Source of the DNA: Ferroglobus sp.
Lineage (GTDB): Archaea; Halobacteriota; Archaeoglobi; Archaeoglobales; Archaeoglobaceae
Assembly: GCA_015520115.1 (NCBI GenBank)
Contig: WAQS01000213.1
Coordinates: 1 to 6,800 of the forward strand
DNA length: 6,800 bases
Reading direction: 5' to 3'
Below are positions 4,587-6,800 of the stretch, one piece after another. How positions within the stretch are numbered: position 1 is the first letter of the stretch; every line of letters starts with the position of its first letter. The translations under genes and the position numbers were made by a program. A model generated the notes under the pieces. It was not told the DNA's origin. It saw nothing but the letters and a program-made list of their open reading frames with translations, and did no database searches.

Positions 4587-4686
4587 CCCGGCTTAGCTCA
4601 GTGGCAGAGCGCGGGCCTGTAGTCTGTCCTGCCGCTGGCAGGCGGCAGAGAGCCCGTGGTCCCCGGTTCAAATCCGGGAGCCGGGA
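4587..4686 (+). tRNA. tRNA-Tyr (GUA) with intron
   Basis: The cloverleaf can be folded by hand. Acceptor stem CCCGGCT (4587-4593) pairs perfectly with AGCCGGG (4679-4685), with discriminator A at 4686. D stem is GCTC/GAGC (4596-4599, 4607-4610) with G18G19 at 4603-4604. Anticodon stem is CGGGC (4612-4616) with GCCCG (4652-4656), and the anticodon GTA is at 4619-4621. T stem is CCCGG/CCGGG (4662-4666, 4674-4678) around loop TTCAAAT. The C1-G72 pair with A73 is the archaeal tyrosine identity signature and agrees with the anticodon. The mature molecule is 72 nt, and CCA is not encoded. The anticodon loop is interrupted between positions 37 and 38. A TATA box is at 4551-4556. The gene marks the border between core-type DNA on the left and a decayed, AT-richer region on the right, a common role for tRNA genes as integration sites. 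Confidence 0.95.
4623..4650 (+). other. tRNA intron, about 28 nt, canonical 37/38 position
   Basis: These bases must be removed to close a seven-base anticodon loop, C-T-G-T-A-G|A. The boundaries follow from the bulge-helix-bulge logic of archaeal splicing endonuclease. Exon CTGT (4617-4620) pairs with intron GCAG (4645-4648), leaving the 3' bulge AG|A (4649-4651) and the 5' bulge AG|T (4621-4623). Inside is a perfect six-pair hairpin, CCTGCC and GGCAGG around GCT (4628-4642). The intron-side helix of the motif is weak, so this is a relaxed form and the boundary could shift by a base. Confidence 0.8.
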
Positions 4687-4827: not shown

Positions 4828-5340
4828 ATGATGTTTTACACTTCGGCGAAGATTGAATCATCTCTTGAGAGCTTTAAGAGGTCTTGCTCGCCTGAGGATT
4901 ATGGGGTCGTTTACGAGTTTGCAACGGACTTGCTGAGCAATGGGTTGAGTGAAATCAGAATAGCAGGATACATTAAGTGGCTCAAAATAATTGTGAAGAC
5001 TCGTGGGAAGAAACTGACTGAGTTCGACAAGGATGATGTGAAGTACGTCATGAATCACTTCCAAATCAGATGTAACAGGGGAGAGATATCCCAAAGCACC
5101 GTGTTCGAAGTTAAGAAAACTCTGAAGAAGTTTTTCAAGTGGTATGATAAAGGGGAACTCGAAACTCTGGAAGAGATCGAAACTCCTGAGGTCAGAGAGA
5201 TACCCAAAGTTGAGGTAAAACCAGAAAGAACCCCGACGCCAGAAGAGGGACGACTGCAGTCTCTCACTGTTGACATCTCACCAAGCAGCGTAAAAGCTAA
5301 CTCAAGAGACACGATAAAGCTCAAATTAAAAGTTGATTAG
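4828..5340 (+). CDS. Integrase-type SAM-like N-domain protein, truncated
   Basis: The open frame has 170 codons. Residues about 12-107 are helical and resemble the SAM-like core-binding domain found at the N-terminus of archaeal tyrosine recombinases. Typical blocks are LLSNGLSEIRIAGYIKWLK (35-53), LTEFDKDDVKYVM (63-75) and TVFEVKKTLKKFFKWY (91-106). A Pro/Glu-rich linker follows (108-143), then SLTVDISPSSVKANSRDTIK (145-164), which looks like the first strands of a CARDB/Ig-like beta-sandwich. There is no catalytic domain and no R-H-R-Y set, so it cannot act as a recombinase. GGGGAG at 4816-4821 lies six bases before ATG 4828; ATG 4831 is an alternative. The frame ends at a TAG inside the beta domain, and protein-like sequence continues beyond it. 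I therefore read it as the surviving front of a longer decayed gene (see 5341-5668). It could still give a short DNA-binding protein. Confidence 0.6.
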   Translation: MMFYTSAKIESSLESFKRSCSPEDYGVVYEFATDLLSNGLSEIRIAGYIKWLKIIVKTRGKKLTEFDKDDVKYVMNHFQIRCNRGEISQSTVFEVKKTLKKFFKWYDKGELETLEEIETPEVREIPKVEVKPERTPTPEEGRLQSLTVDISPSSVKANSRDTIKLKLKVD

Positions 5341-5744: not shown

Positions 5745-6728
5745 ATGTCAACAAAAGCACCCTCTCATAGTGAGATGAAGATATCTCTTTTGATTTTAGG
5801 TGTTTTAGACGAGTGTCTTCATGAGATGGAGTACTCGAAAGATTATTTATCAAGAACGAAGATTCACAAAATCCTCTTCGATGTAATTGAGTCTTTAGAG
5901 TTGGATATTACTAGATCTTGGTACTTAAGAGGGAAGTTTGTTTGGGGGGCTGAAAAGGCTATTAATTTGTATCTGAATATACCAAATAATGAATTTAAAA
6001 ATCTTGTTAGTTCTGATTTTGTAGAAAAATTATGTTCGTATATTGGAATCACGAAAAGTAAGTTAAAAGAGACACTCAAAATGGCATTGGAGAAATTTAG
6101 AGTACTTTTCACAAAGTTGGAACTCTACTTGGCTAACTTGTACGAACACGATGCTCCAGAGGAGTTTAGAAGCTTATACACTTCACATATTGCATTTAAA
6201 GAAAAATTTAGTGAATTGGTAGACGAACTTCAACAGTATTTGAGTAGAACTTCTCTAATCTATTATGAACCCTCATCGTTTTCCGTTGACTATGTATCAA
6301 GATCTATAACAAAACTACAAATGGAGATATCCAAACTTGATGAGTGTTCTGACCCAATAATAGACTTTTTAAATCTTTTCGATGAGATTTTACTTGGAAT
6401 TGAAGAAAAAGTGATTAAAAAGGAACTTCAATCGGAGCATGTGGACACTATAAACCAATTATTTGGTTTCTACGACGAAATTGTTTGGAAACTCCCTGCC
6501 ACGTATATAGCAATAAGGACTATCAAAGGTCCCTCTAAAGAAGAAATAATTGAGAATAGACTCAAATATCAAATAGAGAAACTACCTGAAATTATTTATG
6601 AAAAAGTAAGTGAATTTGAAAATAAAGTAGATCTATTCCCATCGGAATCCTACCTCAAAAGTAAATTAAATTGGAATGATGCGTCTAAGGCTTATCATTC
6701 TATACTAACACAATTCATGATGAGGTGA
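5745..6728 (+). CDS. Unrecognised 327-aa helical protein, PIN partner
   Basis: I do not recognise this protein with certainty. It is predicted to be almost all alpha-helical and soluble, rich in Glu, Lys, Leu and Ile, with no signal peptide or membrane segment. Residues 38-66 (RTKIHKILF, then SWYLRGKFV at 58-66) recall the start of Panacea/DUF4065 (SocA-like antitoxin) domains, in which K-x-x-K-L-L-F precedes an A/S-W-Y-x-H-G-P-x-V motif. The usual G-P is replaced by G-K here, so the likeness is weak. Residues 105-330 form long amphipathic helices, perhaps coiled coil around 150-165 and 184-228. The gene is visibly more AT-rich than ftr or trpB2, suggesting transfer. It appears leaderless, starting at ATG 5745; ATG 5775 is less likely given the TATA spacing. 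Its stop (6726-6728) overlaps the Shine-Dalgarno of the next gene, a PIN nuclease, so the two form an operon. An antitoxin or toxin-regulator role is inferred from this context only. Confidence 0.75.
   Translation: MSTKAPSHSEMKISLLILGVLDECLHEMEYSKDYLSRTKIHKILFDVIESLELDITRSWYLRGKFVWGAEKAINLYLNIPNNEFKNLVSSDFVEKLCSYIGITKSKLKETLKMALEKFRVLFTKLELYLANLYEHDAPEEFRSLYTSHIAFKEKFSELVDELQQYLSRTSLIYYEPSSFSVDYVSRSITKLQMEISKLDECSDPIIDFLNLFDEILLGIEEKVIKKELQSEHVDTINQLFGFYDEIVWKLPATYIAIRTIKGPSKEEIIENRLKYQIEKLPEIIYEKVSEFENKVDLFPSESYLKSKLNWNDASKAYHSILTQFMMR
6723..6728 (+). promoter_or_regulatory. Shine-Dalgarno deciding the PIN start (TTG)
   Basis: AGGTGA is nearly the full archaeal anti-16S match (GAGGTGATT at 6722-6730) and lies four bases before TTG 6733. 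It overlaps the TGA stop of the preceding gene, so ribosomes ending there can restart. This supports the rare TTG start and coupled expression. Confidence 0.65.
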
Positions 6729-6732
6729 TTCT

Positions 6733-6800
6733 TTGCTAGAGTACTTCCTTGACACATCGGTTATAGTAGCATATGCCTCTTGTTTTGGTGATAACGATTT
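6733..6800 (+). CDS. PIN-domain protein, VapC-like (3' end outside window)
   Basis: Only the first 22 codons are visible. They read LEYFLDTSVIVAYASC after the first residue, then FGDND. The strand L-D-T-S-V-I-V-A-Y is the classic opening of PIN domains, in which the Asp is the first of the acidic residues that bind metal in VapC-type ribonucleases. The start is TTG 6733, four bases after a strong Shine-Dalgarno that overlaps the stop of the 327-residue gene. In most archaeal VapBC pairs the upstream gene encodes a small VapB antitoxin of about 70-90 residues. Here the partner is four times larger. The remaining acidic residues and the protein length cannot be checked. It could be a toxin or a stand-alone PIN nuclease. 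Confidence 0.75.
   Translation, partial: MLEYFLDTSVIVAYASCFGDND

What the first reader, a model, noticed from the sequence alone, without database searches (positions are those of the whole stretch)
5745..6800. PIN nuclease coupled to an unusually large, unfamiliar partner: candidate new toxin-antitoxin type
Seen: a 327-residue helical gene is followed after four bases by a gene opening with the PIN signature LDTSVIVAYA, and the second gene's Shine-Dalgarno overlaps the first gene's stop codon. Known: VapC toxins usually follow small VapB proteins with AbrB, RHH or similar domains, and Panacea (DUF4065) domains serve as antitoxin modules for several toxin families. Inference: the large protein takes the antitoxin or regulator position, and its residues 38-66 (RTKIHKILF ... 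SWYLRGKFV) may be a divergent Panacea-like domain fused to a long helical part. The coupling, AT-richness and place beside a tRNA fit a mobile defence-type module.
Basis: partly seen in the sequence, partly recalled or inferred. Interest (0 to 1): 0.7.

Follow-up and report, generated by a model that had tools for sequence, protein, structure and literature searches.

The report
Panacea-like antitoxin coupled to PIN toxin
Archaea carry a recurrent two-gene module in which a large, predicted all-helical protein, likely a distant relative of the Panacea antitoxin domain, sits directly before a predicted RNA-cutting PIN protein or, less often, another toxin-like gene, so it would be a promiscuous antitoxin family that standard domain searches miss.

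Summary
In detail: a 327-codon gene (5745-6728) is followed after four bases by a gene opening LLEYFLDTSVIVAYA (TTG at 6733), cut off by the contig end. The first protein belongs to DUF8098 (PF26400); two full-text searches found no paper on it. Relatives occur in 5 of 59 genomes of the window's class and 75 of 391 of a haloarchaeal class. The next gene was PIN-like in 63 of 86 relatives compared, PemK/MazF in 9, unassigned small proteins in 7, mixed or absent in 7. In reverse, the PIN had a DUF8098 protein upstream in 32 of 34 loci read and a related protein in the other two. A predicted structure of one partner resembles VapC; four acidic positions are complete in 53 of 63. The Panacea guess holds by profile comparison: DUF8098 to Panacea 57% (200 shuffles at most 0.9%), and through bridge families 91-94% to Panacea and 95-98% to DUF8098. 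None of 13 proteins scanned matches the Pfam Panacea model. Best reading: a type II toxin-antitoxin (or sensor-effector) module with a divergent, promiscuous Panacea-related antitoxin. Toxicity, binding and neutralisation are untested. New variant of a known kind.

The parts
5745..6728 (+). DUF8098 (PF26400) protein, 327 aa, predicted antitoxin or sensor
   Evidence: ORF; a 99% identical protein and six further homologues carry precomputed PF26400, one named 'DUF8098 domain-containing protein'; AlphaFold2 model mean pLDDT 89.1, pTM 0.84
5856..5942 (+). residues 38-66, Panacea-like core motif (helix, then a two-strand turn carrying S-W-Y-x-x-G)
   Evidence: K42, S58, W59, Y60, G63 invariant in 22 rows; in the more diverse 29 rows K42, W59 and G63 are at 90% or more; hhalign of 80 DUF8098 rows to 18 Panacea rows, 57.0%, score 35.8 over this motif, 200 shuffles at most 0.9% and 18.0
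6117..6725 (+). residues 125-327, long helical C-terminal part
   Evidence: helices 125-136, 139-168, 182-224, 230-247, 249-259, 265-292, 301-307, 310-326 in the model; no convincing PDB match
6722..6728 (+). Shine-Dalgarno-like GAGGTGA overlapping the stop codon of the first gene
   Evidence: sequence
6733..6800 (+). PIN-like gene, first 22 codons only (TTG start; contig ends at 6800), predicted ribonuclease toxin
4587..4686 (+). tRNA gene with an insertion of about 30 nt in the anticodon-loop region (context)
   Evidence: RF00005, 58.2 bits
4828..5340 (+). ORF with a weak integrase N-terminal SAM-like match (context; possible mobile-element remnant)
   Evidence: PF13495 E 3.6e-4, 21.3 bits, below its cut-off of 27

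Best explanation
The pair is likely a type II toxin-antitoxin module in which the 327-aa DUF8098 protein, predicted to combine a divergent Panacea-like N-terminal domain with a long helical C-terminal part, would bind and restrain a long PIN protein that is predicted to cut RNA. The antitoxin gene comes first, and the toxin start is placed so that ribosomes finishing the first gene would begin the second (inferred from the overlap of Shine-Dalgarno and stop). When the antitoxin is lost or changed (plasmid loss, infection or another cue; inferred), the PIN would be freed and halt translation. The family is not tied to PIN: in another branch the same antitoxin-type protein stands before PemK/MazF or an unassigned small protein, much as Panacea antitoxins change partners. 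The Panacea-like part may be the scaffold or sensor and the variable helical part the partner-specific surface (inference by analogy with PMC10440598). Shown here: gene order, coupling, recurrence in both directions, different partners on one tree, intact acidic residues in most PINs, profile similarity to Panacea. Not shown: toxicity, binding, neutralisation, trigger.
Against: No experiment. The window's own PIN is truncated at 22 codons. None of 12 long PINs scanned passes a Pfam PIN cut-off, and Foldseek finds no PDB match with E <= 0.001; only one of five AlphaFold2 models of the PIN is confident (92.8; the rest 52.9-68.6). In one DUF8098 clade nine PINs have lost catalytic positions, which a nuclease toxin would not explain. 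Pfam PF13274 matches none of 13 proteins scanned (8 DUF8098, 5 bridge), and the five rows nearest the window show no Panacea signal on their own (0.3%). On the tree a single origin of the PemK pairing is not ruled out. At 327 aa it is large for an antitoxin and has no recognised DNA-binding domain.
Confidence: 0.72

Rival explanations
1. A sensor-effector defence module rather than a classical toxin-antitoxin pair: the DUF8098 protein would sense infection and switch on the PIN effector, which would act as an abortive-infection nuclease, without antitoxin turnover or autoregulation.
For: In 2 of 8 plasmid records the pair lies within or beside a DISARM-type gene cluster (annotated DrmE, helicase, DUF1998, phospholipase D, cytosine methyltransferase; PADLOC confirms DrmE in the first and DrmC in the second); in another it is two genes from a HEPN protein matching candidate system PDC-S58. 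The authors of PMC10440598 favour a sensor role for Panacea in antitoxins with other neutralising domains. Large size fits a sensor.
Against: In 4 of 8 plasmid records the pair is near replication or conjugation genes instead. It overlaps with the best reading, as TA pairs can defend against phage.
Confidence: 0.45
2. An RNA-processing complex: the helical protein is an activating or substrate-binding subunit of a PIN ribonuclease with a cellular role.
For: Strict pairing and mirrored divergence fit any obligate complex; the PIN model also aligns to protein-only RNase P chains at lower Z (7.2 to 8.4).
Against: Patchy distribution (5 of 59, 75 of 391 genomes), plasmid residence, and PemK/MazF in place of the PIN do not fit a housekeeping role.
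Confidence: 0.08
3. The DUF8098-Panacea similarity is convergence of a short helix-turn motif, and DUF8098 is an unrelated promiscuous antitoxin fold.
For: The direct match covers only 36 columns; no Pfam match; the PDB comparison barely tested the N-terminal part.
Against: The bridge families align to most of the Panacea domain (99-114 columns) and to 120-230 columns of DUF8098, with shuffled controls at most 5.8%.
Confidence: 0.2

Closest known systems
Panacea (DUF4065, PF13274) antitoxins, PanAT systems (PMC8832971, PMC10440598)
   Same: Antitoxin-first two-gene order with short gaps, pairing with different toxin folds, a K-L-x-Y ... Y-G motif, two short strands among helices, presence in archaea
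   Different: Below detection by PF13274 in 13 proteins scanned; about 330 aa with a long helical C-terminal part; mainly paired with a long PIN. In the main text of PMC8832971 a word beginning 'pin' occurs once, as a verb. PMC10440598 lists PIN/VapC-like toxins and PanA among its validated nuclease pairs; the PIN pairs named in the passages seen have RHH antitoxins. Supplements of both could not be read.
VapBC (PIN toxin-antitoxin)
   Same: PIN toxin second in a coupled pair; acidic positions kept; predicted fold aligns to VapC-type chains
   Different: The upstream protein is large and shows no AbrB/RHH-type domain; the PIN has about 110 residues between the second and third acidic positions (E53 to D166 in L027) and is 216-264 aa (one truncated copy 144 aa), against about 130-140 for the VapC chains listed
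MazEF/PemIK
   Same: PemK/MazF is the partner in one DUF8098 branch
   Different: The upstream protein is DUF8098, not MazE or PemI
DISARM class 1 (class name recalled)
   Same: Two plasmid copies of the pair lie in or beside such a cluster
   Different: Not a constant component: no DrmE in the other six plasmid neighbourhoods read

Membership tests
DUF8098 (PF26400) | match to the Pfam family | tested here: met
   Precomputed PF26400 on the 99% identical protein and on all 15 homologues listed; the model itself is not in the held Pfam, so the window's own protein was not scanned with it
Type II toxin-antitoxin module | two adjacent same-strand genes with short spacing, conserved across species | tested here: met
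   63 PIN-like next genes among 86 rows, gaps -35 to +18
Type II toxin-antitoxin module | second gene encodes a known toxin fold | tested here: met
Type II toxin-antitoxin module | toxicity of one gene, neutralised by the other through direct binding | not testable with these tools
   no experiment; no complex prediction available
VapBC | PIN toxin with conserved acidic residues | tested here: met
   D10, E53, D166 and D189 all present in 53 of 63 PIN-like partners; only the first is visible in the window
VapBC | small antitoxin with a DNA-binding domain (AbrB, RHH, Phd or similar; recalled) | tested here: not met
   327 aa, no such Pfam match even at E 10
Panacea (PF13274) | match over the Pfam gathering score | tested here: not met
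   no PF13274 match in 8 DUF8098 and 5 bridge proteins scanned
Panacea (PF13274) | profile-level homology over the domain | tested here: met
   57.0% direct over 36 columns; bridge families 91.2% and 93.6% to Panacea, 97.5% and 94.8% to DUF8098; the two bridge subsets alone 72.9% and 71.1% to Panacea; shuffles at most 5.8%. Not met by the five rows nearest the window taken alone (0.3%)
Panacea (PF13274) | compact fold of helices 1-7 and strands 1-2 (PMC10440598) | tested here: inconclusive
   the DUF8098 model has two short strands (57-59, 64-66) among helices, but no Panacea model was available for superposition
Panacea (PF13274) | pairing with several unrelated toxin folds | tested here: met
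   PIN, PemK/MazF and unassigned partners on one tree of 86 rows
DISARM | constant component of the gene cluster | tested here: not met
   DrmE-bearing cluster in 2 of 8 plasmid neighbourhoods read

The most novel reading that the evidence does not exclude
DUF8098 and its unannotated bridge families form an archaeal branch of a Panacea superfamily that surveys built on the PF13274 model would miss: a hyperpromiscuous antitoxin or sensor platform with a partner-specific helical arm, paired chiefly with a long PIN effector, that has swapped in PemK/MazF and other effectors and entered DISARM islands.
Probability: 0.5. Interest if true: 0.65.

Novelty: new variant of a known kind. Interest (0 to 1): 0.52.

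Why it matters
If true, the best known hyperpromiscuous antitoxin domain has a large hidden archaeal branch, and a domain of unknown function and an unannotated protein family gain a testable role. It supplies natural series of related antitoxins with different partners (PIN, PemK, unassigned) to ask how one fold neutralises unrelated toxins, and adds TA or defence candidates in haloarchaea, where genetic tools exist in Haloferax volcanii (recalled).

Tried and rejected

I first read the 4-member partner cluster (L018, L078, L081, L095) as RelE/ParE-like from its motifs. A profile comparison with 18 archaeal ParE-family proteins gave only 12.3%, and Pfam, NCBIfam and PDB sequence searches nothing credible, so it is reported as unassigned; 'RelElike' in the outputs is only my early label. 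The 3-member cluster (L021, L113, L115) did not match the PIN profiles (0.2%). The L024 partner, a singleton by phmmer, did match the PIN profile (91.6%).

Viral contigs gave no relative and no copy of the window's 3' end. Canonical haloarchaeal Panacea loci contain no long PIN or DUF8098 neighbour (0 of 20 loci).

Rows dropped before counts: one search dropped 33 of 124 DUF8098 ORFs as duplicates; one search left out four ORFs under 255 aa and the window's own copy (91 to 86); near-copies remain in the tree. Before six distant or short rows were dropped from the DUF8098 set (86 to 80); L144 was dropped from the Panacea set and L133 (same as L132) was never added, leaving 18 rows, 3 of them under the family cut-off; L119 was dropped; five rows before the mirror test. 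Eight of 38 PIN places were not read. One search stopped with an error after its 200 shuffles; the other controls were run.

Full report
What is in the window. Its nearest named relatives are Archaeoglobaceae/Archaeoglobales, and the window carries a formylmethanofuran-tetrahydromethanopterin formyltransferase. A tRNA (4587-4686) and an ORF with a sub-threshold integrase N-terminal match (4828-5340) precede an AT-rich stretch. There lies the 327-codon gene (5745-6728) and, four bases on, a TTG-started frame reading LLEYFLDTSVIVAYASCFGDND until the contig ends. GAGGTGA at 6722-6728 overlaps the stop codon.

What the first protein is. The protein database assigns PF26400 (DUF8098) to a 99% identical protein and to every other homologue found (7, 15). 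The held Pfam lacks that model. No paper in the searched library mentions DUF8098 or PF26400. AlphaFold2 from 22 aligned sequences gives a confident, nearly all-helical model (pLDDT 89.1, pTM 0.84).

Where relatives occur. They are in 18 of 294 genomes drawn from the phylum, 75 of 391 in the class of haloarchaeal genome G028 and 5 of 59 in the window's own class, itself included. Eight plasmid records hold one, all haloarchaeal. Two viral-contig searches found none.

What follows them. Reading the loci left 91 non-duplicate DUF8098 ORFs, 88 of them with a downstream ORF. Clustering by phmmer gave 63 PIN-like, 9 PemK/MazF, 4 and 3 in two unassigned clusters, and 9 singletons. The singletons include gene fragments, one VapC-type PIN over the Pfam cut-off (L114) and one divergent PIN (L024). 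In the 86-row tree the labels are 63, 9, 4, 3 and 7 other. The labels are clustered: PIN needs 6 changes (shuffled mean 20.5), PemK 2 (8.7), the four unassigned 1 (4.0), the three unassigned 2 (3.0); the mixed label 'other' needs 7, no fewer than shuffled. PemK and the four unassigned partners share one supported clade (100/99), and one PemK row (L083) falls beside the unassigned ones, with weaker support (92/79). So related antitoxins have different partners, though a single origin of the PemK pairing is not ruled out. The 63 PIN gaps lie between -35 and +18 bases, 41 of them at 0 or overlapping (starts were chosen mechanically). L030 and L090 had no partner in the stretch read. The set comes from several overlapping searches and holds near-copies, so the proportions are not those of nature.

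Reverse test. A profile of the PIN (A3) matched 4 of 59 genomes of the window's class and 36 of 194 haloarchaeal ones. In all 4 of the former, and in 28 of the 30 haloarchaeal loci read (of 38 places), a DUF8098-profile hit lies directly upstream; in three of these (L179-L181) it is weak, E about 1e-6 to 1e-5. In the other 2 a protein of about 310 aa with the motif RTRIHKLCCLAD...YWYKYG stands there. Distances within the two proteins of 58 pairs rise together (r 0.953; 0.773 for distant pairs; best of 1000 permutations 0.181). Shared inheritance alone would also give this.

Is the first protein Panacea-like? I collected Panacea proteins from haloarchaeal genomes (matches in 22 of 194, over the cut-off in 16) and compared profiles. 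200 column shuffles reached at most 0.9% and 18.0; reversed rows and PIN profiles gave 0.2%, the four-row unassigned toxin profile 1.3%; random halves of either side kept 22.8-63.7% in 12 of 12 trials. By subset: PIN-paired 38.0%, PemK-paired 18.2%, paired with the four unassigned 59.8%, paired with the three unassigned 0.2%, the five rows nearest the window (L008, L009, L010, L015, L022) 0.3%. The bridge is stronger. Proteins upstream of the most divergent PINs (9 rows) match Panacea at 91.2% and DUF8098 at 97.5%, with 200 shuffles at most 2.0% and 2.8%; their two subsets alone match Panacea at 72.9% and 71.1%. A family of 86 relatives of one of them, none with a precomputed Pfam domain, matches Panacea at 93.6% over 99 columns and DUF8098 at 94.8% over 120, with 100 shuffles at most 5.8% and 1.1%. 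The profiles use plain sequence alignments without secondary structure. None of 13 proteins scanned (8 DUF8098, 5 bridge) matches PF13274 itself, so I call it Panacea-related and do not file it as Panacea.

Surroundings. In Halorhabdus tiamatea pHTIA and a Halomicrobium urmianum plasmid the pair is in or beside a DISARM-type cluster (PADLOC DrmE in the first, DrmC in the second). On the Haloplanus and two Halobacterium plasmids it is near primase genes, with conjugation-type genes in the two Halobacterium stretches; on a Halorubrum plasmid about 5 kb from a replication gene; on a Halocatena plasmid near a HEPN gene and transposases; on a Natrinema plasmid near a phospholipase D-like gene and helicases. 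This fits a mobile module with defence neighbours but does not prove defence.

How it most likely works. Antitoxin first, toxin second, with translational coupling, is the usual type II layout. The DUF8098 protein would hold the PIN inactive; release would let the PIN cut RNA. PMC8832971 (abstract, passages and the first part of one results section seen) reports Panacea antitoxins neutralising many unrelated toxins, with complex formation. PMC10440598 (passages seen) finds that in multidomain antitoxins other parts can neutralise and proposes Panacea as sensor. By analogy the long helical part here may be the partner-specific surface. All of this is inference.

Relation to earlier work. PMC8832971 searched with the PF13274 model at gathering cut-offs, which saw none of the 13 proteins that I scanned. 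Its main text does not use PIN as a domain name (one word beginning 'pin', a verb). PMC10440598 mentions PIN-like toxins several times; the PIN pairs named in the passages seen have RHH antitoxins. PMC2701414 (passages) describes PIN-associated antitoxin families in archaea; none in the passages seen is this one. PMC12458937 (term counts and one passage) has no occurrence of PIN. Supplements were not readable, so a prior listing of these pairs there is not excluded.

Verdict. It is a new variant of a known kind: a divergent Panacea-related, promiscuous antitoxin candidate with a long PIN as main partner. Interest 0.52.

Noticed in passing
L124:11200-23754 and L125:3577-20320: The DUF8098-PIN pair lies in or beside DISARM-type clusters (DrmE, helicase, DUF1998, phospholipase D, cytosine methyltransferase) on two haloarchaeal plasmids.
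   Followed up: partly
partners in L019, L098, L102, L104, L105, L106, L109, L110, L112; see also L024: In one DUF8098 clade the PIN-like partner has lost one or more catalytic acidic positions although the gene coupling is kept.
   Followed up: partly
proteins P0016-P0101; loci L175, L176: A family of at least 86 proteins of about 310 aa with no precomputed Pfam domain (the organism names given are haloarchaeal) bridges Panacea and DUF8098; in the two loci read it precedes a divergent long PIN.
   Followed up: partly
L018:969-1418, L078:1479-1931, L081:2954-3403, L095:2985-3443: Four DUF8098 genes are followed by a conserved protein of about 150 aa with no credible Pfam, NCBIfam or PDB match in the searches made (RelE-like only by eye; profile 12.3%): candidate new toxin.
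   Followed up: partly
L021:689-1231, L113:3013-3519, L115:1626-1865: Three DUF8098 genes are followed by another unassigned protein of 168-180 aa (one copy 79 aa).
   Followed up: partly
L008:1053-1487: In Archaeoglobus veneficus (contig of 1,901,943 bases) the PIN partner frame is only 144 aa while the DUF8098 frame is complete.
   Followed up: no
window:4587-4686: tRNA gene with a probable intron in the anticodon loop; found by Rfam, missed by ARAGORN.
   Followed up: partly
window:4828-5340: ORF with a weak integrase N-terminal SAM-like match just after the tRNA; possible remnant of an integrated element.
   Followed up: no
L003:722-2035: A HEPN protein matching PADLOC models PDC-S58 and Cas13-ApeA lies close to a DUF8098-PIN pair.
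   Followed up: no
L093, L114, L038: Broken copies: a shortened DUF8098 frame followed by a transposase-like frame (by eye; L093), and split or fragmentary DUF8098 frames (L114, L038).
   Followed up: no
L130, L132, L133: Canonical haloarchaeal Panacea genes followed by a similar frame of 193-200 aa, a candidate partner that I did not identify.
   Followed up: no
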